Shown: in pieces, positions 1,609-61,050 of the stretch | Position numbering within the stretch: the stretch's first letter is position 1 | Layout of the letters: each line of letters begins with the position of its first letter | Assembly: GCA_019454045.1 (NCBI GenBank) | Contig: SKCR01033661.1 | Coordinates: 124,001 to 188,000 of the forward strand | Reading direction: 5' to 3' | DNA: 64,000 nt | DNA from: Zanthoxylum bungeanum | Taxonomy: Eukaryota > Streptophyta > Magnoliopsida > Sapindales > Rutaceae | Program-made: the position numbers and the translations under genes | Notes under the pieces: model-generated | What the model was told of the DNA's origin: nothing | What the model saw: the letters and a program-made list of their open reading frames with translations, nothing else | Database searches by the model: none

Positions 1609-1755
1609 TCCACCGCCATATACTAAGTGCATATTCCTTGCAGCAATAACTCGACTCAATTCCTGTGCTGCTGCTACGTATTTTGGTTTAATACCAACAC
1701 TAGTACCGCAAAACACACAAATGTTTTCAACTCGTCTTCTTGAAGTGGCTTCCAT
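1609..1755 (-). pseudogene. LOG: 5' fragment of captured LOG-like cytokinin-activation gene
   Basis: From an ATG at 1755 the minus strand reads 49 in-frame codons: the LOG-family N-terminus with ICVFCG (residues 12-17) and LVYGGG (44-49). The gene is then cut by the LTR of G. Unlike the copy in C, this fragment has no frameshift before YGGG, so the 1-nt deletion in C arose separately. The first 52 nt are identical to the copy in C. The next 75 nt or so carry about eleven differences, mostly amino-acid changing, which argues against strong selection in this stretch. Confidence 0.85.
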
Positions 1756-2007
1756 ATTTTACTCTGGATGTCTTCAAAAGTGCAATGATGAGTTGAATTT
1801 ATAACACCTGAAAAGGGTGAGTAAAATAATAGCACTAGTACCTGCCAGATGAAAATTATTAGTTAAACAGTAAAATAAATCGGGAAAGGTCAAAAAGGTC
1901 TGGATCTTGTCGGAGAAAATAAAAGAAAACAACAAAACAAATCACAATTATTAGGAAAAGACAAAGAGATATAATATGTACAAGAAACGTAGCGGCTTGA
2001 TTGACAT

Positions 2008-2584
2008 CTATGCGTCACAGACAAGCTTCCTATCCAATTTTCTTATAAATAGGCAAACAGGGTCTTTTTGAGTCAGATTCCCGAGACTTAATTGTTGTCT
2101 TTCTTTTTGGAATTGTGTAAATAACACGCAAATTTCATGATACACATATCCACTAGAATGCGTCTCAAGAGTTTTAGATATGTCATCTAAAAACTCCTTA
2201 CTCAAGTCATCCCTAATGAAATTAATCTTATCTTCACGGTTATCAGACACCATTCCTAAAGAACGACAACGAGTATCACAAAACATACGAGCACATTTAT
2301 AACAAACACACATTCTTTTGGCTCTTCTCTTTTTAGCATAGGTGCTTCTTCCTAAACATGACAGATGTGAGATAAAAGAATCAGAAAACTCACCTGCCAA
2401 TCGGACCTATGATAATCCAACGAATGTCAGTAGGATTACCTTTGATCATCAGTAGTCTTATCCGTTCTAAGCGAGCTTTGTAGATTTTCATCAAAAAATT
2501 TTGAGGGAGAGAAGGAAATTGCTTGTGAAGATTTGCGAGAACTTGTTCCATCCTGAAATGACTTAACCTGTAAAAACTAAACAC
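2008..2584 (-). pseudogene. Copy of gypsy extra ORF (Cys-cluster protein), frameshifted
   Basis: Two overlapping minus-strand frames (2584-2390 and 2400-2008) together match the 193-codon ORF at 28352-28933 of C over its whole length, so one frameshift lies near 2395. It keeps the basic stretch (KKRRAKRM), a C-x2-C-x4-C cluster with a further Cys four residues on, and the C-terminal LSLGNLTQKDPVC. I do not recognise the family. It lies between integrase and LOG, as in C. Confidence 0.7.
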
Positions 2585-2674
2585 ACCAAATCACAATATA
2601 TACACAAATTGCATGGGTTGCCTAACTACTAGCGCTAAGTTTAACGTCGTCAGCTAGACGTGACTACCCGAACG

Positions 2675-4084
2675 TTATGCTGGATCTGAAAGTGTGACAC
2701 TTTCTTTTTGTCGCTCAAATGATTCTCCCCAGTAGTGCTTGACACGCTAACCGTTAACCTTGAATGTGTTGTTGGTATTGGGATCCAGTAACTCAACAGC
2801 TCCATATGGTAAAACGTGAGTGATCAAAAATGGACCTGACCACCTTGATTTTAACTTTCCAGGAAAAAGTTTCAACCTCGAGTTGTACAATAACACCTGC
2901 TGCATTGGTTCCAACTGTCTGTGCACTGTTTTTCAGTCATGTCATTTCTTGGTCTTTTCTTTGTACAATCTGGCATTCTCATAAGCCTGTAGGCGAAATT
3001 CCTCCAATTCATTGAGTTGGTGAAGTCTTTTCTCTCCTGCAGCTTGTGGATCAAGATTCAACTTCTTCAGTGCCCAGTACGCCTTGTGTTCAAGCTCAAC
3101 TGGCAGATGGCATGCTTTCCCAAACACCATTCGATATGGGGACATACCAATGGGTGTCTTGTAAGTTGTCTGGTAGGCCCATAATGCATCATCCAGTTTT
3201 GTTGACCAATCCATCCTGGTTGATCCAACAGTTCTTTCCAAGATTCTTTTTATTTCTCTATTTGAAACTTCAACCTGTCCATTTGACTCTGGATGGTAAG
3301 CAGTGGCAACCTTTTGAGTAACTCCGTATTTGGATATGAATGCATCAAAATATTTGTTGCAGAAATGTGTGCCATCATCACTGATGATTGCCCTAGGTGT
3401 TCCGAAGCGAGTGAAAATATTCTTTTTAAGGAATTTGATCACCACTTTTGAATCATTGGATGGTAGTGCAATTGCTTCAACCCATTTGGAGACGTAGTCT
3501 ACAACAACCAGTTTGTACAAGTTTCCGAATGATGGAATAAAAGGTCCCATGAAATCAATACCCCACACATCGAATATCTCAACTTCCAGAATGTTTTGCA
3601 ATGGTCCTTCATTTATCCTCGAAATATTCCCCATTCTCTGGCACCTGTCACATTAAAGAGCAAAAAGATAAGCATCTTTAAAAAGAGTGGGTCAGAACAA
3701 ACCTGATTGAAGAACTTTTACTGCAGTTTTATTCCCGCTGAAGTGTCCGCCATATGGTAATGAATGACAGTGCTGCAAAACATTGTTGACCTCCTCATGT
3801 GGAATACATCGTCTCAGTAGTTGATCAGCACAACGTTTAAACAGGTACGACTCATCCCAGATATAATGCTTGACTTCTTTGAAGAACTTCTTTCATTGTT
3901 AAGTTGTCCATTCCAACGGCCATTTTCCAGAAACTATATAGTTGACATAGTCAGCATACCAATGGACTTTCTGCTGTTTCATGGCAAACAACTGTTCATC
4001 TGGAAAAGTTTCTTTGATTGTCAATTCTTTGTCAGCTGTTTCTCCATTCTCGAGCCTCGATAAATGATCTGCCACTTGGTTTTC
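2675..4084 (-). pseudogene. pol: Gypsy pol fragment: RNase H end and integrase
   Basis: The minus strand reads the RNase H tail ([15 protein letters not shown], near 4087-4040), then integrase. The open frame 3634-2942 holds the DDE core: Asp in GIDFMGPF, Asp in IISDDGTHF, Glu in [11 protein letters not shown]. The C-terminal region [14 protein letters not shown] is intact here, where C has a frameshift. A TGA replaces a Trp codon at 2942-2944, and other breaks lie upstream between 3640 and 3900. The reading frame would end at the TAA at 2675-2677. Confidence 0.85.
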
Positions 4085-23501: not shown

Positions 23502-23998
23502 GTGTATTTGGTCTTAACCTGAGACTTGCATCGCTAGTACTTACGACAATCGGTAAACTTTGGTTTTGGTCGTCCAGGACTTTAACAGGTTCTGTGTACG
23601 CCTCTTCTGGGTTTATTGAGAATCATAGTGTATTGGATGTGATATCAAGACGGAAGTATCACTTCAGATATGTGGAGATGATGATCACGCAGGGATTCAG
23701 AACTGGTTCTCTATAGTGTTGTAACCATCGGGATAATATGACAAGGTCATGATTATCCGATTCAAAGAGACTAGTTGCTTGATATCTGATATGTGCTTCG
23801 TAATGGGTAGACATTATTCCAGCCCCAGGCCTCGTACGTGACATCTGATACTGGATTGCAATACATAATACTACGGTATACTACGCCTGATAAAGATCGT
23901 ATATTCCAGTAAGAATATTTCTGGAGAATTGGGTAGGCATGGCGTTTTGCTAGAAGCCAACCTTGTCTCGTAAATCGATAAAAACATAGTACGAGGTA
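23502..23998 (+). repeat. A 5' LTR, second piece
   Basis: Matches about 44060-44550 of the 3' LTR of A. It begins with the GTGTA copy left by B and ends with AGGTA (23994-23998), the target duplication of C. Confidence 0.9.
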
Positions 23999-26105
23999 TG
24001 ACCGGCGTAATCACACACGTATAACGCAAGCGCACGTATCGTTCAAGTAGTATAAAAAGTATCGATCCCACGAGGACTTAAAACCTTTTTGTTATTAATT
24101 TATGGGGCCAACTGATTACCAGTATCTAACAGGTTGTTTGATTGGTTGATTTGAAATGACGATGATTCTAAATTTAAAACAAGTAAATAAAATTGCTTAA
24201 AAGTAGGTTGAGAAAAATCCAAATTTATAAAAAAAAAAACTATCCAGGGTTGTGATTAATTCCAAAATTATTTAGAAGATGAAGTGGTTATCTTAAAGTT
24301 GGGTAATATATTGATTTATTAACCTGGAACACTAATTTATGTAAAAGCCTCTTCCGATGGTCAATTTCAAATACCTAGTATAATCCAATTGAACCATATG
24401 TCTATGTCAACCAAATTACCTAGATTCATTAAGATTAAGTTCCAATTATGGCTACCCCCGCCCGACAGGTATATTCCTATCCTGTAAGGAAATCTATTAA
24501 AAGGGTTATCTATCCTCAAGGAAGATCGTGGGCTATTGAGTCTAAGGTCTTAAACTTAAAATCTCTATGTCTAGTTCATTTTAAGTTTACCTAATCAATT
24601 TTATTAATGGCCAGTTAATAAAAAGCATTAAGATTAAGACTCAATAAATAAATCTTTAAATTACCCAACCTATAATCTAACCCCTTATAAACCGGTTATA
24701 TTGAAATTCATCACAACCCTAGATACTAACTTAGTTACAATACATAGCTATGGCTAATGAAAACTTAAAAGACATAAAATAAAAATGCTAAAAGTAACTG
24801 CGAGAAAGTAAAAGCGGGAAAGTAAATGAAAATAAACTGCAAAGATAAAAGGAATTACTTTTACTAATTACTAACTTAGATATCTCCCTTAGTATAACAT
24901 AATCACTTGTGAGATTAAAACCAACCGACCATATAGGCGGTACCCTGATTAAGTCAAGTTAAGTCCGACCAGCCATAAAGGCGGTAAAATTTGTCCATGA
25001 ACCTGCCATGTAGGCGATAAAGAAATAACCAGCCATAAAGGCGGAACCAAAATTAAATTACCAACCGACCAATCTGGCGGTATCCTTGCTTAGTCAGGTT
25101 TAACAGTTTAAATTAAATAGCCCACCGACCAATATAGCGGTATTCCTTTTAAGTCAAATTTTAGAATAGTGAATATGTTGTGTCTAAGGGAGATTAATCT
25201 AAGATAGTAACAGTAAAAGAATTACCTTTCACCTCGGCAGAGGGAAGTTACCTCCTCATGGTTGAAAAATAAAAACTGAAAAAGTAAAGAAAGGAAAGTG
25301 TTATGCGTAAAGTAAATTACGGAAAGTAAAACTGAAAAGTAAAGAAAAGAAAGTGCGAGAGTGAAAATTAATTACTGAAAACTAAAAATAAACAAACTAG
25401 ATACAATCTTTTTATTTTTTCATTAAGGATTTCAAAGAAGAAAGTATATATATTACAAATGAAATGGCTTGGTATTTATAGGCAAAATTTTGCCACCATC
25501 AAATCATCAATCAATTTCTCCACCAAATCCATTAATTTCTTTCTCCACTAATTACTCCACCAAATCCATAATTGCTCCACTAATTGCTTATCTTGTTTGG
25601 TGGTGATTTGATAATTTTTATTAATTATTTATTAATTAATATTTTGCTTTGAAAATGATTGATAATGACTTTTAATAATTACACTCCACACACTTCTGGA
25701 TGGTTCATCAATTTCGGTCATGAAATCATCGGAATTTGAAACTATTTTCTCTTTCAAAGTTGTAGATCTTTTAGTTTTCTTTAATCTGGAACTTGAATCA
25801 GCTCAATCCGATATCTGAGTAAAGGTTATGCTCAAATACGACAGATGCGCAAAACTGGAATTTCCAAAACTGCACTTCGTCAAAAAACGCCCTTTCACAA
25901 GTTTCCAATCTCCAAAATTAATATATCAAGTCCAATAATTGCCCTTATTTGATCCACATTTCGTTCTAAATGATTTCATTGAGTCCCGATATTATTTTAT
26001 CTGCAAAATAAAATAAAACATATCAAAACGTTCATCAAACTCGAGAAACTAAACAAAATATTAAGTAAAATGGGCGGTAAATATTGATATATTTTCCGCT
26101 CATCA
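23999..26105 (-). repeat. C 3' LTR
   Basis: 2107 bp. On the plus strand TGACCGGCG to CGCTCATCA. It contains the six-copy quasi-palindromic minisatellite (24921-25142) and, on the minus strand, a TATAAATA box at 25480-25473. Confidence 0.93.
24921..25142. repeat. LTR minisatellite with CCGACC...GGCGG units
   Basis: Six imperfect units at about 24921, 24965, 25011, 25029, 25061 and 25121. Each carries a quasi-palindrome such as CCGACCATATAGGCGG. It is repeated in the other LTR of C (about 35370-35590) and in E (about 59950-60150). In element orientation it lies downstream of the TATA box, so it is in transcribed leader RNA. Confidence 0.8.
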
Positions 26106-26120
26106 CACCCCAAACCTAAC
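26106..26120 (-). other. C polypurine tract
   Basis: The minus strand reads AGGTTTGGGGTG directly before the 3' LTR start (TGATGAGCGG). Confidence 0.75.
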
Positions 26121-26896
26121 ATTTTGCTAGTCCTCGAGCAAACAACAAAATAAAATTAAAATTAAACTAAGCCACTTTCGTAGGGATCACGGTTGCATTT
26201 AGCGTATGCAACAAGCCTTTAAACCCCTAGGTGTCCTAGTGGACGAGTTGTAGTCTCGTGAGGGTTTACAGCAACGATACCCACAAACGTTTTACAAAAG
26301 TAAAAAGTTAGTTAAAACTAATGCACACAAAAGCAAAAAGACAAGAGAAAAGAGAATAAAGAAGTTAATGACTAATCAAGTGAAACTTACTCCAAGTTAC
26401 TAGTTGTTTTGTTTCTTTCTAAACTACCGAATAAGTAAATTCTCCGATTATATTTACCATTCTCCATATACACAGCCAGCAAAATATTAATCAACTCATT
26501 TTTGCCCACAACAGTCACAAGTGCAATTGATAAGAGAATAATATTTTTGTCCTAAGGTTCTATTAGATTTCACACCTTTTTATAGTAATGGAGTAAATTT
26601 TTTTTTTCTGATTTTTCTCATTTTTTCTTTCTTTTTTCTCTATTTTTTTATTTATATACAATATCTTCTGTCTATGTAGCGAGCTTTGGGTCGGTGGCTC
26701 CCAAACCAGTTGGCTTTAGGGCACCAGGTGTTAAGACACCCCTATGGACTTAATTACCCAGACATTAGATATAAATATTTTTGCAACATCATTGATCCAT
26801 GTAGCGAGCTTTGGGCCAATGACTCCCAAATCAGTTGGTTTTAGGGCACTGGGTGTTAAGACACCCTTACAGACTTAATAACTCGGATCTCAGACG

Positions 26897-26928
<32 letters not shown>

Positions 26929-27473
26929 CCATCACTTTTTTGAGATGCTTCCTCCAATTAAACTATAGCACTGAATATTACAAAATTTTCAATTTTAGCT
27001 CATGACCGTGTGTTACCATGTATGTTGATAATACCTGCCAACGGAGCATATGAAGATCCATTTTAGTCAGATTTATGGAGAATTCACAAATTAAATAATT
27101 CAAAAGGAAATAAAAAAAAATTAACTTGTTTCGAAATAGGTTTGAGATACGTCTCAGGAGTGGAAATTCCTTACTCGGCTATCTCTTACCAATTTCACCT
27201 TTTTAGTCAAAATAAAAACACAAATGCAAAATATTTTTGTAATTTTTGAAAAAATTTTCAATTTTTTTTTATATTTTCGAAAAATTTTGAACTTTAAACT
27301 AAAAACAACATACAACTAAAAACAAGATAATCAGCTAATTCCCTCCCCCAAACCTAAATGAGACATTGTCCCCAATGTCTTAAATAGTAGAAGAAGAGTT
27401 TAGACGATAATACCTGGTTAACTGAAATTCTACAGGAATTTAAAGGTTAAGATCCAGATTAACCCGACGTCTC
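26121..27473 (-). other. C 3' untranslated region between LOG and the 3' LTR
   Basis: No open frame of note. It holds a tandem pair of about 125-bp units (26674-26798 and 26799-26896), a run of 29 T on the plus strand (26897-26925; poly-A in element sense), and several A/T-rich runs. ATGGAGTAAA (about 26588) faces TTTACTCCAT (about 26923) as an inverted pair around the duplication. Confidence 0.7.
26674..26896. repeat. Tandem duplication, 125-bp period
   Basis: ATGTAGCGAGCTTTGGG starts both copies, at 26674 and 26799. Both contain the GGTGTTAAGACACCC region, itself an inverted repeat (GGTGT...ACACC). Confidence 0.85.
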
Positions 27474-28090
27474 TTACCACGATCGTCCCAGACCAATTAT
27501 CTTTGAAATGATAGGGTCAATTTGTGGTTCATATGCTATGAGTTGGTCAATTAGATCCGGAGCGGTTCTGGCAGTAAATAGAAGTTCTTTTAAAGGTTTT
27601 GATATGAACCCATTCCTCCGTGCATCATCAAGAAACACACAAAGAAAATCATAAAATCCATCAACATTGTATAGCCCAATTGGTTTCTGGTGTATGTTCA
27701 GGTTCGCCCAAGATAGTACAATAAAAATTTCTTCCAATGTACCCAAGCCACCTGGCAAAGCAATAAAAGCATCAGCACGGTTAATCATTTCTACCAGTCG
27801 TTCAGACATACCTGGCACGATCAGTTCCTCTCCATTTGATGGTTCAATAAGATTTGCCTCTGCCAAGGGTTTTGGGATAATTCCCAAGACATGACTGCCT
27901 CCTTCCTGAACGGCCTTTGAAACGATCCCCATTAGTCCAAGATTGCCTCCGCCATATACTAAATCATATTCCTTGCAGATAGGACTCGACCCAATTCCTT
28001 TGCTGCTTCTATGTATTGTGGTTTAGTACCAACACTACTACCGCAAAACACACAAATGTTTTCAACTCGTCTTCTTGAAGTGGCTTCCAT
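27474..28090 (-). pseudogene. LOG: Captured LOG-like gene (cytokinin riboside 5'-monophosphate phosphoribohydrolase), one frameshift
   Basis: LOG enzymes release free, active cytokinin base from its nucleotide. From ATG at 28090 the minus strand encodes about 205 residues, the family's usual length: ICVFCGSS at 12-19, YGGGNLGLMG (27956-27927), then the catalytic PGGLGTLEE (27755-27729) with the preceding Arg of the MSERLVEM region kept, ending GLGRSW before TAA at 27474. A 1-nt deletion near 27965, seen by comparison with 1609-1755, shifts the frame ahead of YGGG; from MGIVSKAV (27932) the frame is open to the end. No introns, although plant LOG genes normally have them, which suggests capture of spliced mRNA. 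It is in sense with C, between the extra ORF and the 3' LTR. Family assignment is firm; activity is not implied. Confidence 0.92.
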
Positions 28091-28351
28091 TTTTATGTTT
28101 TTCTTTCTTAACTCTGGATGACTTCAAAGGTGCAATGATGAGTTGAATTTATAATACCTGAAAGGGGTGAGTAAAAATAGCACAAGTATCTTCCAAAGGA
28201 CGATTAGTAGAACAATAGTAAAATAGATCGTGATAGTCAAAAAGGTATGGATCCTGTCGGAGAAAATAAAAGAAAACAACAAAACAAATCACAATTATTA
28301 GGAAAAGACAAAGAGATATAATATTTATAAAAATTACAGCTTGATTAACGT
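28091..28351 (-). promoter_or_regulatory. Spacer before LOG with TATA-like and 3' splice-site-like sequences
   Basis: The minus strand has a pyrimidine-rich run ending CCCCTTTCAG (cut near 28158), then TATTATAAATTC (about 28155-28145), about 60 nt before the LOG ATG. The same arrangement stands at about 1797-1815 in F. It could be a splice acceptor for a subgenomic RNA or a small promoter. Both readings are inference. Confidence 0.35.
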
Positions 28352-28933
28352 CTATGCGTCAGGGACAAGTTTCCCATCCAATTTTCTTATAAATTGGCAA
28401 ACAGGGTCTTTTTGAGTCAGATTCCCAAGACTTAACTGTTGTCTTTCTTTTTGGAATTGTGTATGTAATTTGCGAATGGCAGTATGAACATATCCACTGG
28501 GATGCGTCTCAAGAGTTGAAGATATATCATCTACAGACTCCTTACTCAAGCCATCCCTAATGAATTTAATTTTGTCTTCGCGATTATCAGACACCATTCC
28601 TAAAGAACGAAAACGAGTATTACAATTCCAACGTGCACATTTGAAACAAACACCCATTTTCTTTGCTCTACGTTTCTTTGAATATGTGCTTCTTCCAAAT
28701 CCAGGCAAATAAGAAGTACAAGAATCAGAATATTCACCTGCTAATCGAACTCGTGCTTCGATTACCCAACGAATGTCATTAGGAATACCATGGATCGTCA
28801 GTAGTCTCATCCTTTCCAAGCGAGCTTTGTAAACTTTCATCAGAGAATTTTGAGGGAGAGAAGAAAATTGCTTGTGAAGATTTGTGAGAGCTTCTTCCAT
28901 CTTGTAATGACTAAATATGCAAAAACTAAACAC
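28352..28933 (-). CDS. Gypsy extra ORF, Cys-cluster protein of unknown function
   Basis: An open frame of 193 codons. The likelier start is the second Met (residue 12, MEEALTNLHKQF), because the F copy is also most alike from there. Visible features: a basic, nuclear-localisation-like stretch KKRRAKKM, a zinc-ligand-like cluster C-x2-C-x4-C (CFKCARWNC), an acidic/polar middle, and a conserved C-terminus (LSLGNLTQKDPVC). No signal peptide or membrane span is evident, so it does not look like an env protein. It lies about 110 bp after the integrase stop and 261 bp before LOG. I do not recognise the family. Conservation in F argues that it belongs to the element family. Confidence 0.7.
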   Translation of the reverse strand: MFSFCIFSHYKMEEALTNLHKQFSSLPQNSLMKVYKARLERMRLLTIHGIPNDIRWVIEARVRLAGEYSDSCTSYLPGFGRSTYSKKRRAKKMGVCFKCARWNCNTRFRSLGMVSDNREDKIKFIRDGLSKESVDDISSTLETHPSGYVHTAIRKLHTQFQKERQQLSLGNLTQKDPVCQFIRKLDGKLVPDA

Positions 28934-29039
28934 ACAAAATTAAATCACACCAAATCACAATATATACAAAGATTGCATGGGTTGCCTCCCTGCGAGCGCT
29001 AAGTTTAAAGTCGTCAGCTAGACGTGACTTTTCGAACGT

Positions 29040-31910
29040 TTAGGCTGGATCTGAAAGTGTGACACTTTCTTTTTGTCGCTCCAACGGTTCTCCCCAATAA
29101 TGCTTAACCCGCTGACTATTAACTTTGAATGTGTTGTTGGTATTGGGATCCAGTAACTCAACAGCTCCATGTGGTAAAACCTGAGTAATCACAAATGGAC
29201 CTGACCACCTTGATTTCAACTTTCCAGGGAAAAGTTTCAACCTCGAGTTGTACAACAACACATGTTGCCTTGGTTACAACTGTCTGTGCACTATTTTTCG
29301 GTCATGCCATCTCTTGGTCTTTTCTTTGTACAGTCTGGCATTCTCATAAGCCTGTAGGCGAAATTCCTCCAATTCATTGAGTTGGTGAAGTCTTTTCTCT
29401 CCTGCAGCTTGTGGATCAAAATTCAACTTCTTCAGTGCCCAGTACGCCTTGTGTTCAAGCTCACTGGCAGATGTCATGCTTTCCCAACACCAATCGATAT
29501 GGTGACATACCAATGGGTGTCTTGTAAGCTGTACGGTAGGCCCATAATGCATCATCCAATTTTGCAGACCAGTCCCTCCTTGTTGATCCAATGGTTCTTT
29601 CCAAGATTCTTTTGATTTCTCTGTTTGAAACTTCAACCTGTCCATTTGACTGTGGATGGTAGGCTGTGGCAACCTTGTGAGTAACTCCGTATTTGGATAG
29701 AAGTGCATCAAAGTATTTGTTGCAGAAATGAGAGCCACCATCGCTGATGATTGCTCGAGGTGTTCCAAACCGAGTGAAAATGTTCTTTTTCAGGAATTTG
29801 ATCACCACTTTTGAATCATTGGATGGCAATGCAATTGCTTCAACCCATTTGGAGACGTAGTCTACAGCAACCAAGATGTACAGGTTTCCGAATGATGGAA
29901 CAAAGGGTCCCATGAAATCAATACCCCACACATCAAATATCTCAACTTCCAGAATGTTTTGCAATGGTCCTTCATTTCTTCTCGAAATATTCTCCATTCT
30001 CTGGCACCTGTCACATTGAAAAGCAAAAAGATAAGCATCTTTAAAAAGTGTAGGCCAGAACAAACCTGATTGAAGGACTTTTGCTGCAGTTTTGTTTCCG
30101 CTGAAGTGTCCGCCATATGGTGATGAATGACAGTGCTGCAAAACACTGTTGACCTCCTCCTGTGGAACACACCGTCTCAATAATTGATCAGCACACCGTT
30201 TGAACAGGTACGGCTCATCCCAGATATAGTGCTTGACTTCTTTGAAGAATTTCTTCCGTTGTTGAGTTGTCCATTCCAACGGCCATTTTCCTGACACAAT
30301 GTAGTTGACATAGTCAGCATACCAAGGGGTATCTTGTTGTTTCATGGCAAACAGCTGTTCATCTGGAAAAGTTTCTTTGATTGATAGTTCTTTGCCAGCT
30401 GTTTCTCCATTCTCGATCCTCGATAAGTGATCTGCCACCTGGTTATCTGTTCCTTTCCTGTCTCGAATCTCCACGTCAAATTCTTGCAGAAGAAGTATCC
30501 AACGGATCAATCTGGGTTTGGCATCTTTCTTCGCGATCATATATTTGATTGCTGAATGATCTGTGTAGACTACCACCTTGGGACCCAACAGATAAGAACG
30601 GAATTTGTAAAAAGCGAACACAACTGCAAGCAACTCCTTTTCAGTGGTTGTGTAGTTGAGTTGAGCTTCATTTAGAGTTCTGCTGGAGTAGTAAATGGTG
30701 TGGAAAACCTTTGCTTTGCGTTGTCCCAAAACTGCACCTACAGCAAAATCACTAGCATCACACATTACTTCAAATGGAAGGGTCCAGTCTGGTGTTACAA
30801 TGATGGGGGCAGAAACCAGCTTCTGTTTCAAGATCTCGAAGGCTTCCTGGCATTCTTTGGTGAAGTTGAAAGGCACATCCTTTTCCAGAAGGTTGCAAAG
30901 AGGTTTTGCAATTTTGGAAAAGTCTTTGATAAATCTCCTGTAAAAACCTGCATGTCCAAGAAAACTCTGAATGCCTTTGACAGATGTTGGAGGAGGTAGT
31001 TTTTCAATTGTCTCGATCTTTGCTTTGTCTACCTCAATTCCCTTTTGTGAGATCCGGTGTCCAAGAACAATGCCTTCATGTACCAAAAGTGGCATTTCTC
31101 CAGTTGAGTACCAAGTTCGTGTCTTCACACCTTTGTAATACATGTTCAAGATTTTGCAAACAATGATCAAATGAATCTCCAAATACAGAAAAGTCATCCA
31201 TGAAAACCTCCATACTCTGCTCCAACATATCTGAGAAGATGGCCATCATGCAACGCTGAAATGTGGCAGGGCATTACATAGTCCAAATGGCATCTGCGGA
31301 AAGCAAAAGTACCATAAGGACATGTGTAAATGTGGTTTTCTCCTGATCCTCTGGTGCAATGGAAATCTGATTGTATCCTGAATATCCATCCAAAAAGTAA
31401 TAGAACTCATGTCCCGCCAATCTGTCTAACATCTGGTCAATGAATGGTAGCGGAAAATGGTCCTTTCTGGTGGCTTTGTTCAGCTTACGGTAGTCCATGC
31501 ATACTCTCCATCCAGTTACCGTTCTTGTCGGAATTAACTCATTTTTTTCATTGGGGATCACAGTAATTCCTCCTTTCTTCGACACACATTGTATAGGACT
31601 CACCCAACTGCTGTCTGAAATGGGATAAATGATGCCAGCATCCAACCATTTGATGATTTCTTTCTTCACGACTTCCTTCATGATTGGATTGAGTCTCCGT
31701 TGATGCTCCACAGTGGGTTTGTACTCATCGTTCATCAAGATTTTGTGCATGCAAAATGATGGACTAATGCCTCGAATGTCTGCTATAGTCCAACCAATGG
31801 CTTTCTTGTGCTCTCGCAATACTCTCAGCAACTTTTCTTCCTGTTCTAATGTTAGCGACGAAGAAATTATAACAGGTAATTCAGAAGAGTTTCCAAGAAA
31901 TGCATACCTG
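29040..31910 (-). pseudogene. pol: C pol: reverse transcriptase, RNase H, integrase (frameshifted)
   Basis: RT begins near 31910 (frame 31831-31274: WVSPIQCVSKKGG, WRVCMDYRKLNKAT, YYFLDGYSGYNQI) and continues in another frame with the FMDD catalytic site at about 31210-31195. The frame 31197-29461 carries RNase H ([37 protein letters not shown]), the integrase zinc region (HCH...CDRCQR) and the DDE core ([27 protein letters not shown]). A frameshift near 29470 puts the [14 protein letters not shown] tail in another frame, ending at TAA 29040. At least four breaks are visible, so this copy cannot make a full polyprotein. Confidence 0.9.
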
Positions 31911-32524
31911 AGATGGCTCGGAGTAACTTCAGCTCCAGCTGCGGTGGTTCTTCAATCGAGGGTTTGATCCGGTCTGTCTTTGGAAGTTCCAAACTTTCAA
32001 TTGGTTGTGTCACTTTGAAACGAAACGGCTTGTCAAGATAGTTGATACATTCCATAATTTCAGCATCAAGCTCACAGTCAGACATGTTGGTGATGCAAGC
32101 TTCAAGTTTGTCTGTGGGAATTGTATCAGTATCTTGAATGATACTATCAACAACATCAATTCTGAAACATTCTTCTTCCTTTTCATCGCTCGGGAATTTC
32201 ATGGCTTTGAACACATTAAAGGTAACTTCTTGGTCTTGTACTTTCATGGTCAGTTCTCCTTTTTGTACATCAATCACAGTTCTCCCTGTAGCCAAGAATG
32301 GTCTCCCAAGAATGATAGGAACATCTTTGTCTTCTTCCATGTCAAGGATAATGAAATCAGCTGGGAGAATGAGTTTGGCAACTTTCACCAACACATTCAA
32401 CCACTCCTCTTGGAAATGCGAGCGTCGATCGGCAAGTTGCAAAGAAACAGAGGTAGGCATTGCTTCTCCAATCTGTAGTTTCCTGTAAATAGAAAAGGCA
32501 TCAAGTTAACACTAGCACCTAATG
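31867..32524 (-). pseudogene. pol: C protease region (disrupted)
   Basis: The minus strand encodes the Athila-type aspartic protease: LGAS then NLMP (about 32505-32485), LQLADR, then DFIILDMEED, PIILGRPFLATGR and VIDVQKGELTMKV in the frame 32460-31867. The catalytic Asp expected before LGAS is displaced by about a dozen inserted bases and the frame breaks there, so the protease appears dead. Confidence 0.75.
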
Positions 32525-34380
32525 CTACTGTCTCACATAAACCTTACCGATGTAATGTTCTCCAATGGTGCACGGGACTGTGAAACTGCCAGGATCTTTC
32601 AACTTCTGGGGTAGTTTCCTCTGAATGATGGCACTGCATTCTTCCGTCAATGCTACTGTCTCGTAATCTCCCAATCTTCGTTTTCGTGAAAGAATATCTT
32701 TCATGAATTTGACATAGCTGGGCATTTGTTCCAAGGCTTCTGCAAATGGAATATTGATGTGCAGCTTTTTGAATACTTCCAGGAATCGAGCAAACTGCTT
32801 GTCCAGTTTGTTTTTCTGAAGACGCTGAGGAAAAGGTGGAGGTGGAGTATCATCTGTTCTTTTTCCTTTGCTTCTTTTTCCTCCATCTGTTGCTCTGCTT
32901 CTTTTGGAACATCTTCAATGGTTGCCTTGATTCCAACATCTTTGTTGATTTCAGTACCACTTTTCAAGGTGATGGCTTGACATTGCTCCTTCCCTCGGTT
33001 CCTTGGATTCGGTTCTGTATTGCTGGGAAGATTTCCTGGTGGTCTGTAACTCTGTGCATTGGCCAGTTGTCCAATCTGATTTTCCAGTGCTTTGATAGAA
33101 GCTGATTGGTTCTGAATCATAGCATCGTATTTTTTTAACTGAGCCAGCACTTCTGCCATTACTGGTTCTTTTTCATGCTCCTGGCCTTTGTTATGTTGCT
33201 GGAATACAGGTGGTGGATTGTTCTGTTGCTGAAATCCTGGTGGTGGATTGTTCCTTTGTCCAGAATTGTTGCTCCATGAAAAATTGGGATGATTCCTCCA
33301 CCCTGGGTTGTAGGTGTTGGAATATGGATTGTTTCCATGTCTGTTGAAATTGTTGACATAATTCACCGTTTCTTCAGGTTGAGTTGGCTCTGGTGCTCCT
33401 CCATATGTTGAACTTGTTGCTCCAATATTGCTTTGAGTGTTGAGAGTCTCCATGAATTTGCATATCTGGTCCAGTTTGGCACTAACTGCTGTGTTGGCTC
33501 CAACTTCATAAATTCCTGCAATTCTTTGAATCAAGCTCCTTTCTGTTGGCCACAAGGAATTGTTATTGGCCATCTCTTCGATTAGGTCCCAGGCTTGATC
33601 TTCTCCTTTTGACATCAAAGCTCCTCCAGCAGCAGCATCAACTGTGGTTTTCATCAATCCAGAAAGTCCATTATAGAAAGTTTGGACTTGAAGCCATTTT
33701 GGAATCTCATGGTGAGGACATTTCCGGAGCAGATCTTTGTATCTTTCCCAAGCTTCGTACATGGATTCTGAATCTTGCTGCACAAAGGATGTGATGTCAT
33801 TCCTCAACTTTGCAGTTCTGGCTGGTGGAAAGTATTTTGCAAGGAATTTGGTGGCTAGAGTGTTCCATGTTGTGATGGAACCAGCTGATAGTGAATGTAG
33901 CCAGACCTTTGCTCTGTCTTTCAAGGAGTATGGAAAAACTCGCAGTCTCATTGCTTCTTCTGATGCTCGGTTGTAATTGAAAGTGCCACAAACTTCCAGG
34001 AAGTTGCTGATGTTGGCATTAGGATCTTCAGTTGCATTCCCCCCAAACTGAACTGACTGCTGAATCATCTGAATGCAATTTTTGATATCTCCTGCATTTG
34101 CTGGTAAGGGAGGAAGTACAATACAGGAAGTGAGGCCATCTACCACCGGAATGGTTCTGTCTCGAATGGGAATTGGTGGTGCAACCTCCAAAGGTTCAGG
34201 TTCCATGTTAACAATTGCTTCTTGGCCTTCTCGCCTTTCCCTTCTCAACTGTCTGATGGTTCTTTCTATCTCAGGGTCAAGCGGATGGATTTCAAAGCTT
34301 CTGGCTCGTCTCATTAAATGTCTGAGAACCTGAAACACAAGAAAACAAAAACAATAAGTAAAAAGAAAAATAAGATACAA
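32525..34380 (-). pseudogene. gag: C gag (Athila type), C-terminal frameshift
   Basis: The frame 34380-32701 encodes the gag core: FEIHPLDPEIERTIRQL, a capsid domain (NFLEVCGTFNYNRASEEAMR, WLHSLSAGSITTWNTLATKF, PHHEIPKWLQVQTFYNGL, DAAAGGALM) and an Asn/Gln/Pro-rich stretch. A frameshift near 32840 moves the tail (EQMPSYVKFMKDILSRKRRL, to 32525) to another frame. The hydrophobic first 17 residues are probably not coding. The likely start is MRRARSFE at about 34315, just after a TTTCAG that resembles a splice acceptor. Confidence 0.88.
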
Positions 34381-34423
34381 GTAACGAAACTAACCCGTAA
34401 ACTAATAATGAAAGATAAATAAG

Positions 34424-34441
34424 TCCCCGGCAACGGCGCCA
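34424..34441 (-). other. C primer binding site, tRNA-Asp type
   Basis: The reverse complement reads TGGCGCCGTTGCCGGGGA, six bases from the 5' LTR end, as known for Athila-type elements. Confidence 0.85.
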
Positions 34442-34447
34442 AAAACT

Positions 34448-36553
34448 TGACCGGCGTAATCACACACGTATAACGCAAGCGCACGTATCGTTCAAGTAGT
34501 ATAAAAAGTATCGATCCCACGAGGACTTAAAACCTTTTTGTTATTAATTTATGGGGCCAACTGATTACCAGTATCTAACAGGTTGTTTGATTGATTGATT
34601 TGAAATGACGATGATTCTAAATTTAAAACAAGTAAATAAAATTGCTTAAAAGTAGGTTGAGAAAAATCCAAATTTATAAAAAAAAAACTATCCAGGGTTG
34701 TGATTAATTTCAATATTATTTAGAAGATGGAGTGGTTATCTTAAAGTTGGGTAATATATTGATTTATTAACCTGGAACACTAATTTATGTAAAAGCCTCT
34801 TCCGATGGTCAATTTCAAATACCTAGTATAATCCAATTGAACCATATGTCTATGTCAACCAAATTACCTAGATTCATTAAGATTAAGTTCCAATTATGGC
34901 TACCCCCGCCCGACAGGTATATTCCTATCCTGTAAGGAAATCTATTAAAAGGGTTATCTATCCTCAAGGAAGATCGTGGGCTATTGAGTCTAAGGTCTTA
35001 AACTTAAAATCTCTATGTCTAGTTCATTTTAAGTTTACCTAATCAATTTTATTAATGGCCAGTTAATAAAAAACATTAAGATTAAGACTCAATAAATAAA
35101 TCTTTAAATTACCCAACCTATAATCTAACCCCTTATAAACCGGTTATATTGAAATTCATCACAACCCTAGATACTAACTTAGTTACAATACATAGCTATG
35201 GCTAATGAAAACTTAAAAGACATAAAATAAAAATGCTAAAAAGTAACTGCGAGAAAGTAAAAGCGGGAAAGTAAATGAAAATAAACTGCAAAGATAAAAG
35301 GAATTACTTTTACTAATTACTAACTTAGATATCTCCCTTAGTATAACATAATCACTTGTGAGATTAAAACCAACCGACCATATAGGCGGTACCCTGATTA
35401 AGTCAAGTTAAGTCCGACCAGCCATAAAGGCGGTAAAATTTGTCCATGAACCTGCCATGTAGGCGATAAAGAAATAACCAGCCATAAAGGCGGAACCAAA
35501 ATTAAATTACCAACCGACCAATCTGGCGGTATCCTTGCTTAGTCAGGTTTAACAGTTTAAATTAAATAGCCCACCGACCAATATAGCGGTATTCCTTTTT
35601 AAGTCAAATTTTAGAATAGTGAATATGTTGTGTCTAAGGGAGATTAATCTAAGATAGTAACAGTAAAAGAATTACCTTTCACCTCGGCAGAGGGAAGTTA
35701 CCTCCTCATGGTTGAAAAATAAAAACTGAAAAAGTAAAGAAAGGAAAGTGTTATGCGTAAAGTAAATTACGGAAAGTAAAACTGAAAAGTAAAGAAAAGA
35801 AAGTGCGAGAGTGAAAATTAATTACTGAAAACTAAAAATAAACAAACTAGATACAATCTTTTTATTTTTTCATTAAGGATTTCAAAGAAGAAAGTATATA
35901 TATTACAAATGAAATGGCTTGGTATTTATAGGCAAAATTTTGCCACCATCAAATCATCAATCAATTTCTCCACCAAATCCATTATTAATTTCTCCACTAA
36001 TTACACCACCGAATCCATAATTGCTCCACTAATTGCTTATCTTGTTTGGTGGTGATTTGATAATTTTTATTAATTATTTATTAATTAATATTTTGCTTTG
36101 AAAATGATTGATAATGACTTTTAATAATTACACTCCACACACTTCTGGATGGTTCATCAATTTCGGTCATGAAATCATCGGAATGTGAAACTATTTTCTC
36201 TTTCAAAGTTGTAGATCTTTTCGTCTTCTTTAATCTGGAACTTGAATCAGCTCAATCCGATATCTGAGTAAAAGGTTATGCTCAAAATACGACAGATGCG
36301 CAAAACTGGAATTTCCAAAACTGCACTTCGTCAAAAACGCCCTTTCAAGTTTCCAATCTCCAAAATTAATATATCAAGTCCAATAATTGCCCTTATTTGA
36401 TCCACATTTCATTCTAAATGATTTCATTGAGTCCCGATATTATTTTATCTGCAAAATAAAATAAAACATATCAAAACGTTCATCAAACCCGAGAAACTAA
36501 ACAAAATATTAAGTAAAATGGGCGGTAAATATTGATATATTTTCCGCTCATCA
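34448..36553 (-). repeat. C 5' LTR
   Basis: 2106 bp, about 99% like the 3' LTR by eye. TATAAATA on the minus strand at 35930-35923 puts U3 at about 36553-35900. The rest, about 1.45 kb, is R and U5 and includes the minisatellite. Confidence 0.93.
35923..35930 (-). promoter_or_regulatory. TATA box of C 5' LTR
   Basis: TATAAATA on the minus strand, duplicated at 25480-25473 and matched by TATAAATT in E (60430-60423). Confidence 0.5.
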
Positions 36554-37503
36554 AGGTACGTACGTGTTCGGATAGTCCGACGACCGTATTTACTTCCAAC
36601 ATATCCAGAGATCTCTTGGGTCACTTCCCGAAGATTCACCAATGACGTATGATTCGAGCTAAATTAATCTGGGATTAATTACGGAGAGACTTTATCTTGG
36701 ATAAAGTACTATTTAAAGAGAGAGAAATATTAATTTGGAATTAATCGTTAAAATAATATATTCGATATATTATTCGGAAATAGATTTCGACACGGAATTA
36801 AAATTAGATTTTAATTCGGGCAAACGAGTTAATTTAGAATTAATTCGTTAGCGACGTGAATAGTAATTTTGCTAGGCATAATTATTTATATAAATTCAAT
36901 TTAAATTAAGTCGCGACGGAAGTTCGTTAATTCGGAATTAGCGAACCCGAGCCCGGGAGTGTTTGCGGGCCCACTCGCATTCGGAATCGAGTGGGGCCCA
37001 CATGTCACATCAACCATCACATCACATGTCACCTTTATTACCTTTAGGTTGATGTGTTTAGGTGAGTTGGTGATTGTGTGTGTTACACTCCAAAGTCAAA
37101 GCATTGAAAGCTTGTGTGACTATTACCTAATACAACTTTTGGTATATGGTTAATATTTGTTTTTGAAAAGAAAACACACAATCTTCATCTCTCCTCCATT
37201 ACCGAAACCAGTGAAGGAAATTCCTCTCCCCATTTTGCTTCTTCTTGACTGAAAATTGAGAGAAGAAAGTGAAGAATTTTTGTGGCAAAAATTCTCCTTG
37301 AGCTAGCACTCTTCAAGGATCATCAAGAGGTGATAGGGAAACTTATACAAGAGCTTGGAAAGACAAAACAAAGCTTGGAGCATTGTGGACTGCCTTGGCC
37401 GAATTCTTGGAGCTCTTGGAGGAGGAAATTTTGTTGTTCATCACATCCTAAACCGATCGTTGTAAGTATGTTTCCGCCATATTTCTTCGTTATTCATCCA
37501 TGT
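36554..37503 (+). repeat. A 5' LTR, third piece, 3' end deleted
   Basis: Starts with the AGGTA copy left by C and matches 44545-45495 of the 3' LTR, including the palindrome array. The match stops at about 37503 (TTCATCCATG). The last 40-45 bp of the LTR and the primer site are missing. Confidence 0.9.
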
Positions 37504-58046: not shown

Positions 58047-58982
58047 GAGAGTCTCCATGAATTTGCATATCTGATCCAACTTAGCACTGACTGCTGTATT
58101 GGCTCCAACTTCATAAATTCCTGCAATTCTTTGAATCATGCTCATTTCAGTTGGCCACAAAGAATTATTGTTGGCCATTTCTTCGATTAGGTATCAGGCT
58201 TGATCTTCTCCTTTTGCCATCAAAGCTCCTCCAGCAGCAGCATCAATTGTGGTTCTCATCAGTCCAGAAAGTCCATTATAGAATGTTTGGACTTGAAGCC
58301 ATTTTGGAATTTCATGGTGAGGATATTTCCGAAGCAAATCTTTGTACATTTCCAAAGATTCGTAAAGAGTCTCTGAGTCAAGTTGTACAAAGGATGTGAT
58401 GTCATTCCTCAGTTTTGTTGTTCTGGCTGGTGGAAAGTACTTTGCAAGGAATTTGGTGGCTAGATTGTTCCAAGTTGTGATGGAACCAACTGGTAATGAG
58501 TGTAGCCAAGCCTTTGCTCTGTCTTTCAAGGAATATGGAAAAACACGTAGTCTCATTGCTTCTTCTGATGCTTGGTTGTAATTGAAAGTTCCGCAAACTT
58601 CTAAGAAGTTGCTGATGTGGGCATTAGGATCTTCAGTTGCATTCCCCCCAAACTGAACTGACTGCTGAATCATCTGGATCCATGTTTTGATGTCACTCGT
58701 ATTTACTGGTAAGGGAGGAAGTACAATACAGGAAATGAGTCCGTCAACCACCGGAATAGTTCTGTCTCGAATGGGAATTGGTGGTGAAACCTCCAAAGGT
58801 TCAGGTTCCATGTTAACGATTGCTTCTTGCCCTTCTCGTCTTTCCATTCTCAATTGTCTGATGGTTCTTTCAATCTCTGGGTCAAGCGGTCGGATTTCAA
58901 AGCTTCTGGTTTGTCTCATGTAGTGTCTGAGAACTTGAAAGACAAGAAAAAAAAACAGTAAGTAAAAAGAAATTAGATACAA
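58047..58982 (-). pseudogene. gag: Gypsy E gag fragment (Athila type), interrupted by D
   Basis: The minus-strand frame 58982-58194 encodes the same gag core as C (FEIRPLDPEIERTIRQL, NFLEVCGTFNYNQASEEAMR, PHHEIPKWLQVQTFYNGL, DAAAGGALMAKGEDQA). A stop then interrupts at 58194, and matching sequence continues (MANNNSLWPTE) to the insertion point of D. The matching site in C lies near 33450. The hydrophobic N-terminal residues are probably upstream of the true start. Confidence 0.88.
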
Positions 58983-59026
58983 TTAAAGGTATATAACCTC
59001 AAAACTAATAGTGAAAGATAAATAAG

Positions 59027-59044
59027 TCCCCTGTGACGGCGCCA
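59027..59044 (-). other. E primer binding site, mutated tRNA-Asp type
   Basis: The reverse complement reads TGGCGCCGTCACAGGGGA, against TGGCGCCGTTGCCGGGGA in C: the first nine bases kept, the middle changed. Confidence 0.7.
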
Positions 59045-59050
59045 AAAACT

Positions 59051-61050
59051 TGACCGGTGGTTTCACACGCGTATAACGCAAGCGCACGTATCGTTCAAGT
59101 AGTATAAAAAGTATCGATCCTACGAGGACTTAATACCTATACTATTAATTTTATGAGGCCAAATGATTACAAGTATCTAACAAATTGATTGTTTGATTGG
59201 AATTGTGACTTTAAAATGAAAATAAGTAAATAAAAAGACGTGAAAGTAGATTAAAGAAAATTCAAATTTCTAAGAATTATCCAGGGTTGTGAATCCTTCC
59301 AATATTATTTAAAGGTGAAGTGGTTATCTTACAGTTGGGTGATATATTGGTTTATTAACCTGGAAACGAAATTATGTAAAAGTCTCTTCCGATGATCAAT
59401 TACAAATATCAAGTGTAACCCAATTAATCATATTCATATGTTAATTAAGTTATCTGAACTCATTAAGATTAAGTTCCAATTATGGCTATCCCCGTCCGAC
59501 AAATATATTCCTATCCTGTAAGGAAATCTATTAAAGGGTTATCTATCCTTAAGGAATATCGTGGGCTACTGAGTCTAGGGTCTTAAACCTAAAATCCCTT
59601 TTCCAATTTCATTTTAAGTTTACCATATCAATCTTATTAATGGACAGTTAACAGAAAGCATTAAGAGTAAGGCTCAATAAATAAACCTTTATATTACCCA
59701 AACCATAATCTAACCCCCTATAAACCAGTGATATTAGAATTCATCACAACCCTAGATAACTAACTTAGTTACGACACATAACTAGGGCTAGTAAAATAAA
59801 AGACATAAAGTAAAAAACTGAAAATTAAATGCGGTAAAGTAAATGCTGAAAAATTACAATAAAATAAAATGCTAGGTTTAAATGATCCACTTTTACTACT
59901 ACTATTTTAGATATCTCCCTTAATATAATATATTAACTTGTGATGATTTTACCAACCAGCCATATAGGCGGTAACCTGATTAAGTCAAATTAAGTCCGAC
60001 CAGCCATTAAGGCGGTAACATTATTTGTCCATAAACCAGCCATATAGGCGGTAAATTACCAACCGACCAACCAGGCGGTATCTATGCTTAGTCAGGTTTA
60101 AAACCAGTTTATAATTGTTTACCAACCGACCAATATAGCGGTATCCTTGTTAAGTCAAATTTTAAGTAGTGAATATATTATAATTAAGGGAGTTAATCTA
60201 AATAGCAGTAATAAAAGTTTTACCTTTCACCCTAGCAGTGGGAAGTTACCTCCTCATAGCTGATTAGTAAAAACTGAAAAAGTAAAGTAAGTAAATTATT
60301 ATTACAGAAAGTAACTAAAAATTAATTACAAAACTGAAATTTAAGGAAAACTAGATAAAACTCCCTATTTACATCAGAGAATTCAGAGAGGAAGGTACAT
60401 CTGAAATCAGAAAAATGAGCTGAATTTATAGGCCTCGATAGGGTCTCCGCGTCGCTACGCGCAAGTTGTTATTGCATCGCGACGTAGACACGTGTCACGC
60501 ATATCCGATGACATGGCGATGTGGATGATTAATTCAATCATTATGCTGACGTGGCGTTGATGTGGCAATGACATGGCGACATGTGGCGATAGTGATTGTC
60601 TGCACCGTAGGATTGTGACATGTGGCGCGCTGTGATTGTTGATGATGACGTGGCGATGATGTGGTAATGTTGACTTGTCTTCTGCTGACGTGGCTGACAC
60701 GTGGGGTGACACGTGGCGACATGTGGCGATGGCGATTGTCGGCACCATAGGATGATAACACGTGGCACGGCGCACGTTAGCAAAGTCAAACTTCTCATAT
60801 TTTGACACGTGTCCCCGGCGTATGTTAGCATGGAGCGGCGCACGTTAGACGTCGTGACACGCCAAATTACCATTTTGCCCTTTTGTGTCCTTTTTCAATG
60901 TTTTGACTCCAAATCACCTCCAGAATGTCCTGAAACTTTATTTATCTACAAAATAACACAAAACACATCAAAATATTCACAAAACTCAAGAAACTATACA
61001 AAATATTAGGTCAAATGAGTGGGAAATAGTGATATAATTACCACTTATCA
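59051..61050 (-). repeat. E 5' LTR
   Basis: 2000 bp. R/U5 (59051 to about 60400) is close to C, including the CCGACC...GGCGG minisatellite. U3 upstream of the TATAAATT box (60430-60423) is unlike C over about 470 bp and carries the ACGTG cluster. The terminal 150 bp again resemble C. Confidence 0.88.
60485..60815 (-). promoter_or_regulatory. Cluster of eight ACGTG (G-box/ABRE-like) motifs in E U3
   Basis: ACGTG cores near 60489, 60549, 60648, 60687, 60699, 60711, 60759 and 60807. Several extend to GACACGTGGC or the palindrome GACACGTGTC. Decayed versions (GACATGTGGCG, GACATGGCG) fill the gaps, so it looks like an expanded repeat. It lies directly upstream of the LTR TATA box. In plants such motifs bind bZIP and bHLH factors; action here is inferred. 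Confidence 0.6.

What the first reader, a model, noticed from the sequence alone, without database searches (positions are those of the whole stretch)
27474..28090. A retrotransposon family carries a cytokinin-activating LOG gene
Gypsy C contains, in sense orientation between integrase and 3' LTR, a full-length intronless LOG homologue with the catalytic PGGLGTLEE motif and the preceding Arg kept. The same gene start, at the same place after the same extra ORF, is in F (1609-1755). Two separate insertions sharing it means the gene was captured before the family spread. LOG makes active cytokinin, so a mobile, LTR-driven LOG source would be striking. Against function: C has a 1-nt deletion, and the C/F differences beyond the first 52 nt are mostly amino-acid changing.
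Basis: partly seen in the sequence, partly recalled or inferred. Interest (0 to 1): 0.88.

Follow-up and report, generated by a model that had tools for sequence, protein, structure and literature searches.

The report
Retrotransposon-borne, remodelled cytokinin-enzyme gene
A family of plant jumping genes carries a copy of the LOG cytokinin-activating enzyme gene, but the copy has lost hormone-pocket residues and its relatives end in a short tail resembling a gene-silencing signal, so it more likely serves the element in another way than by making hormone.

Summary
A young Athila-type Ty3/gypsy element (LTRs 99% identical, 5-bp TSD) holds an intronless sense LOG gene between integrase and 3' LTR. 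F, an independent, older relative, has the same gene start at the same place. C and F diverged under purifying selection (INT dN/dS 0.16, extra ORF 0.35), so they descend from replicating elements, not a DNA duplication. Two unnamed relatives (P0016, P0017) have the same non-coding DNA upstream of LOG. Capture before spread is supported. In C, LOG has two frame breaks, not one. LOG domains in LTR elements of Citrus and Populus are in print (PMC9289625), so the capture itself is not new.

'Cytokinin-activating' is weakened. In an 81-row clade holding C, the substrate lysine (K100) is lost in 80 rows and E125 in 79; the 20 rows outside keep both. Catalytic Arg and Glu mostly stay; 7 of 81 lost the Arg. 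The clade shares a basic, LxLxL-ending C-terminus resembling an EAR repressor motif (60 of 70 readable tails; 0 of 16 rows outside). The neighbouring ORF resembles carlavirus nucleic-acid-binding proteins. Best reading: an exapted LOG-fold accessory protein, probably nuclear, not a bulk hormone source. Function is untested.

The parts
23999..26105 (-). 3' LTR of element C (TG...CA)
   Evidence: 98.9% (blastn) to 99.1% (MAFFT, gaps not counted) identical to the 5' LTR
34448..36553 (-). 5' LTR of element C
23994..23998 (.). target-site duplication AGGTA, left
   Evidence: the second copy is at 36554-36558
36554..36558 (.). target-site duplication AGGTA, right; the flank continues a copia copy
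34424..34441 (-). primer-binding site TGGCGCCGTTGCCGGGGA, tRNA-Asp type (complementarity recalled)
32704..34389 (-). gag ORF (562 aa)
   Evidence: Retrotrans_gag 8.9e-22
31277..31951 (-). reverse transcriptase piece; pol is broken by frame changes and stops
29464..31245 (-). RNase H and integrase ORF (594 aa)
   Evidence: RT_RNaseH, Integrase_H2C2, rve
28355..28900 (-). extra ORF (182 aa), Carla_C4 / Viral_NABP-like
28091..28351 (-). spacer between extra ORF and LOG; 28113-28195 is shared with F and with the upstream DNA of P0016 and P0017 (acceptor-like TTTCAG|G and TATAAAT in C and F)
27443..28090 (-). LOG-derived gene, intronless; three stretches in two frames in this copy (two frame breaks); its tail at 27443-27487 is out of frame with the 182-aa ORF
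1609..4084 (-). fragment F: end of integrase (2684-4084), extra ORF (2011-2551), LOG start (1609-1755)
58047..60350 (-). third related fragment: gag start and 5' LTR, 84% identical to C

Best explanation
An Athila-type Ty3/gypsy lineage captured a LOG cDNA (it is intronless) downstream of its integrase and of a nucleic-acid-binding-like ORF, and kept it as an accessory gene. Shown: the gene's place in C and F, the fold of a relative, the clade, the residue changes, the shared tail. Inferred: its job. I think the LOG fold is kept as a dimeric nucleotide-binding scaffold with a changed substrate pocket, and that the conserved basic C-terminus ending in LxLxL takes it to the nucleus and binds a TOPLESS-type corepressor, altering host gene control in dividing cells to the element's benefit, beside a putative silencing suppressor from the extra ORF. 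It is probably read from genomic or spliced element RNA. The copy in this window is itself broken.
For: Capture and spread. Fold: the model of relative P0001 has pTM 0.83 and best matches AtLOG3 (2a33, TMt 0.94). Clade of 81 of 101 rows, support 100/99. Pocket: K100 lost in 80 of 81, E125 in 79 of 81, H97 in 65 of 81; 20 of 20 rows outside keep all three. Tail: strict LxLxL at the very end in 60 of 70 readable tails (of 80 clade rows besides C) against a mean of 1.8 (max 7) in 1000 shuffles; under a looser pattern 67 of 80 clade rows and 0 of 16 non-PDB rows outside. The tail is of low confidence, as a disordered one would be, in the model. Extra ORF: Viral_NABP in 55 and Carla_C4 in 54 of 59 members scanned.
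Against: LxLxL can occur without TOPLESS binding. T119 stays in 81 of 81, E122 in 80, R99 in 74, so some catalysis may persist. Element context is shown only for C and F and, by upstream DNA, for P0016 and P0017; for the rest of the clade it is inferred. In C itself the tail is out of frame with most of the gene. No expression data. dN/dS of LOG could not be computed beyond 33 codons, which show no constraint. The extra-ORF fold is unresolved (pTM 0.30).
Confidence: 0.5

Rival explanations
1. The captured gene is a working cytokinin-activating enzyme, so the element raises active cytokinin in the cells where it is transcribed, promoting division and its own inheritance.
For: LOG fold and PGGxGTxxE kept; T119 81 of 81, E122 80 of 81, R99 74 of 81. 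P0114, the earliest branch of the clade, has every tested residue.
Against: K100 lost in 80 of 81 and E125 in 79 of 81 rows; R99 lost in 7 of 81, six of them Gln.
Confidence: 0.2
2. Passenger: a once-captured gene copied along without use.
For: The copy in C is frame-broken; in the 33 codons compared with F, 6 of 6 changes are non-synonymous.
Against: Full-length frames, the motif and the tail persist in many rows that are only about 50-60% identical to C, though gene callers favour open frames. The breaks in C fit post-insertion decay: 7 gap openings in the LTR pair predict about 1.1 in 648 nt.
Confidence: 0.12
3. Much of the LxLxL-tailed clade consists of host LOG retrogenes, from which the element picked one up; tail and pocket changes would then be host inventions.
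For: Some rows are annotated as ordinary genes (Populus LOGL10). Element context is not visible for most rows.
Against: PMC9289625 reports the YgdH (LOG) domain in P. trichocarpa LTR-element consensuses when its filter is off. Reevesia rows carry names and contig lengths of several chromosomes, as a dispersed family would.
Confidence: 0.15
4. C and F are one DNA segment duplicated, so sharing LOG says nothing about a family.
For: F, as far as it reaches (1609-4084), has no LTR.
Against: C has its own LTR pair and TSD. C and F differ by 10.9%; in the integrase part 35 of 86 changes are non-synonymous, P 1.4e-14 against neutrality.
Confidence: 0.03

Closest known systems
LTR-element consensuses with a YgdH/LOG domain in Citrus sinensis, C. 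clementina and (filter off) Populus trichocarpa (Alvarado-Marchena 2022, PMC9289625, citing Steinbauerova 2011)
   Same: A LOG domain inside Ty3/gypsy LTR elements; plausibly the same capture (not tested).
   Different: The section read (12) gives no anatomy, residues, tail or neighbouring ORF for it; the 2011 paper was not held.
Plant LOG enzymes (AtLOG3, AtLOG8)
   Same: Fold, PGGxGTxxE motif, catalytic Arg and Glu.
   Different: H97, K100 and E125 changed; clade C-terminus with a basic run and LxLxL; no introns (host LOG genes have introns: recalled).
Athila lineage of Ty3/gypsy
   Same: No extra RNase H or chromodomain found; tRNA-Asp-type PBS (recalled); extra ORFs after integrase.
   Different: The extra ORFs are Viral_NABP-like and LOG; Athila ORF-1 (PF03078), named for 16% of Athila elements in PMC6317226, was not seen among them.
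Carlavirus / betaflexivirus nucleic-acid-binding proteins (PF01623, PF05515), some of them silencing suppressors
   Same: Cysteine-rich region preceded by a basic stretch.
   Different: Carried by a retrotransposon; 182 aa with further helices predicted on either side; function untested.

Membership tests
LOG (cytokinin riboside 5'-monophosphate phosphoribohydrolase) | Lysine_decarbox fold and PGGxGTxxE motif | tested here: met
   motif and Pfam match in C; fold on relative P0001
LOG (cytokinin riboside 5'-monophosphate phosphoribohydrolase) | catalytic Arg99 and Glu122 | tested here: met
   C has both; in the clade R 74 of 81 and E 80 of 81
LOG (cytokinin riboside 5'-monophosphate phosphoribohydrolase) | adenine/prenyl pocket His97, Lys100, Glu125, Trp129 | tested here: not met
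   C has S, L, I, W (clade); roles of the residues from PMC4979012
LOG (cytokinin riboside 5'-monophosphate phosphoribohydrolase) | activity on iPRMP/tZRMP | not testable with these tools
   needs an enzyme assay
LTR retrotransposon, Ty3/gypsy | LTR pair, TSD, PBS, gag, RT-RH-INT order | tested here: met
Athila lineage | OTA superclade without the aRH domain that marks Tat (PMC6317226, passages seen) | tested here: met
   no second RNase H and no chromodomain at E<=1 in the RH-INT ORF or in P0249; this excludes Tat and chromoviruses but does not place the element by itself
Athila lineage | placement in an RT/INT tree with reference Athila elements | not tested
   no reference set at hand
Viral_NABP / Carla_C4 | Pfam profile match | tested here: met
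   55 and 54 of 59 members at E<=0.01; the window's own ORF passes the Carla_C4 cut-off (24.9 vs 20.9 bits) but misses that of Viral_NABP (20.7 vs 23)
Viral_NABP / Carla_C4 | same fold | tested here: inconclusive
   model pTM 0.30; the three best viral hits are betaflexivirus proteins (virus family recalled), two named RNA silencing suppressor, at E 0.11-0.35 only
EAR-motif repressor | LxLxL motif (definition in the PMC6479872 abstract, listing) | tested here: met
   60 of 70 readable tails of the clade end in it; in C the tail is out of frame with the 182-aa ORF
EAR-motif repressor | binding of TOPLESS-type corepressor | not testable with these tools
   needs a binding assay

The most novel reading that the evidence does not exclude
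Athila-type elements of several plant families carry a two-gene host-manipulation cassette: a betaflexivirus-type nucleic-acid-binding silencing suppressor, and a LOG enzyme turned into a nuclear corepressor adaptor that gained an NLS-EAR tail before losing its cytokinin pocket (P0114 would be the intermediate: tail present, pocket canonical).
Probability: 0.22. Interest if true: 0.86.

Novelty: new variant of a known kind. Interest (0 to 1): 0.58.

Why it matters
Host-gene capture by plant LTR elements is known, but what elements do with captured genes is rarely known. Here the residues suggest a story: a hormone enzyme kept for its fold, with its pocket changed and a repressor-like tail added, beside a virus-type nucleic-acid-binding protein. 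If true, plant retrotransposons carry effector-like genes as pathogens do. It also warns annotators: proteins of this clade named cytokinin phosphoribohydrolases (such as Populus LOGL10) may be neither ordinary host genes nor cytokinin enzymes.

Tried and rejected
Element copies elsewhere: scans of viral contigs with the extra-ORF alignment, the RH-integrase ORF and a LOG alignment matched 51, 5 and 30 stretches, none confirmed as a relative. The window's own genome was never reached: eight identical requests to the genome search did not complete, so genome-wide copy number, dN/dS of LOG and the host species are open. Among the named integrase hits listed that cover most of the query, Melia azedarach has the highest identity, 72%, which does not name the host.

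Rejected: segmental DNA duplication for C/F. The Xanthoceras canonical LOG P0106 as an element copy by its upstream residues: they match the C and F spacers no better than random window stretches (12 and 92 of 200 as good). The short upstream pieces of P0018 and P0028 did not exceed shuffles. A shared contig length (2425) between one LOG hit and one extra-ORF hit as a sign of linkage: too weak to use. The extra-ORF model (pTM 0.30) is too poor to claim a fold.

Full report
What is there. The window is a nest of plant LTR elements. Element C runs from 23999 to 36553 on the minus strand: LTRs 23999-26105 and 34448-36553, 19 mismatches in 2102 aligned columns and 7 gap openings, K2P 0.0091, about 0.35-0.65 My at recalled plant rates of 1.3e-8 and 7e-9. 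It is flanked by the 5-bp duplication AGGTA and sits inside a copia copy. A PBS of tRNA-Asp type (complementarity recalled) follows the 5' LTR. Gag, RT, RNase H and integrase are present but pol is broken. No extra RNase H and no chromodomain was found at E<=1 in the RH-INT ORF or in its relative P0249. By the division in PMC6317226 (passages seen) this fits Athila rather than Tat; no reference tree was made.

The two extra genes. After integrase comes a 182-aa ORF at 28355-28900. It matches Carla_C4 above the curated cut-off and Viral_NABP below it; among 59 sequences scanned (the window's ORF and 58 of the 120 listed hits, 248 found in all), 54 and 55 match at E<=0.01. Named relatives are in Xanthoceras, Populus, Acer, Orobanche and Rhamnella. 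Its model is poor (pTM 0.30); still, the three best viral structure hits are betaflexivirus proteins (virus family recalled), two of them named RNA silencing suppressors, at E 0.11-0.35. Then comes LOG, 28090 to 27443. In C it falls into three stretches, the middle one in another frame than the first and last, so this copy has two frame breaks. The LTR pair shows 7 gap openings in about 4.2 kb, which predicts about one in 648 nt, so decay after insertion, or assembly error, suffices.

One capture, spread with the family. F (1609-4084) is a separate, truncated relative, 10.9% different from C over 2466 columns. Between C and F, dN/dS is 0.16 in 324 codons of the integrase part and 0.35 in 178 codons of the extra ORF; F has 5 stops in the first and 1 in the second, left out of the count, as were 3 gapped codons of the extra ORF. 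Non-synonymous changes fall below neutral expectation with P 1.4e-14 and 1.4e-4. So C and F descend from replicating lineages, not from a DNA duplication. The 33 LOG codons compared (6 changes, all non-synonymous, P 0.22) are uninformative. Two longer database proteins, P0016 and P0017, include translated upstream DNA. Back-translated, it matches the C and F spacer with scores 51-72, against at most 40.2 in 200 shuffles each and at most 33.4 in 200 random window stretches each. They are 61 and 63% identical to C's LOG, so the same place in the element is kept over a long distance.

The clade. Of 7959 protein hits the best 120 are listed. The tree holds C, four PDB chains and the 96 of 120 hits with at least 185 aa; 24 shorter ones were left out. 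A clade of 81 rows (100/99) holds C, all the Populus, Reevesia and Diplodiscus rows of the tree and many unnamed rows. Outside are seven Xanthoceras or unnamed rows with canonical sites, 11 LOG7/AtLOG-type rows and two bacterial chains. The list is ranked by similarity to C, so host LOGs are thinly sampled.

What changed. By CgLOG numbering (PMC4979012, passages seen) R99 and E122 are the proposed catalytic residues, M96, K100 and E121 form the adenine site, and M96, H97, K100, E125 and W129 line the prenyl site. C reads S97, R99, L100, T119, E121, E122, I125, W129. In the clade K100 is kept in 1 of 81 rows, E125 in 2, H97 in 16; R99 in 74, E121 in 79, E122 in 80, T119 in 81. All 20 rows outside keep all of them. 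P0114, branching first in the clade, keeps the canonical residues yet has the tail. So the tail seems to have come first and the pocket changes later (inference). Six rows have Gln and one His in place of the catalytic Arg. An intact relative, P0001, is predicted with confidence (pTM 0.83) and matches AtLOG3, with N-terminus and tail of low confidence, as disordered ends would be.

The tail. Of 80 clade rows other than C, 70 have a C-terminus readable by the script's pattern; 60 of 70 end strictly in LxLxL, most of them behind a basic run. Shuffling the last 12 residues gives a mean of 1.8 and a maximum of 7. Under a looser end pattern 67 of 80 clade rows and 0 of 16 non-PDB rows outside match; 69 of 80 and 9 of 16 pass a loose count of basic residues, so the basic run alone is not special to the clade. 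LxLxL is an identifying motif of EAR repressors (PMC6479872, abstract in listing), and a pathogen effector that interacts with TOPLESS is reported (PMC7446885, title and start of abstract in listing). TOPLESS binding by the tail is my inference.

How it most likely works. Shown: place, fold of a relative, clade, residue changes, tail. Inferred: the protein is made from genomic or spliced element RNA (an acceptor-like TTTCAG|G and a TATAAAT are shared by C and F), dimerises as LOGs do, enters the nucleus by its basic run, and recruits a corepressor. A residual or altered nucleotide activity is possible. The cytokinin reading remains open at about 0.2.

Known and new. PMC9289625 (section 12 read) reports YgdH/LOG domains in LTR consensuses of two Citrus species and, with its filter off, of P. 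trichocarpa, in line with Steinbauerova 2011 (not held). So the capture is not new. Paper searches on LOG with LTR elements, on extra ORFs, and on carlavirus-type proteins in elements (open-licence papers only) listed no report of the NABP-like neighbour, the pocket loss or the tail; no search was aimed at the pocket or the tail alone.

Noticed in passing
window 28355-28900 (-) and 2011-2551 (-): The extra ORF before LOG resembles carlavirus/betaflexivirus nucleic-acid-binding proteins (PF01623, PF05515), with relatives in Populus, Xanthoceras, Acer, Orobanche and Rhamnella; it may be a virus-type silencing suppressor carried by gypsy elements and deserves its own study.
   Followed up: partly
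window 58047-60350 (-): A third related gypsy fragment (gag start and 5' LTR, 84% identical to C); it could be the 5' part of the element whose 3' part is F, split by nested insertions.
   Followed up: no
window 45624-47043: A 709-bp stretch occurs twice in tandem at 97.7% identity inside a copia-like stretch.
   Followed up: no
window 28039-28090 and 1704-1755: The first 52 nt of LOG are identical in C and F although the neighbouring DNA differs by 13-14%; longer identical runs (86, 70) occur elsewhere in the pair, so this may be chance.
   Followed up: partly
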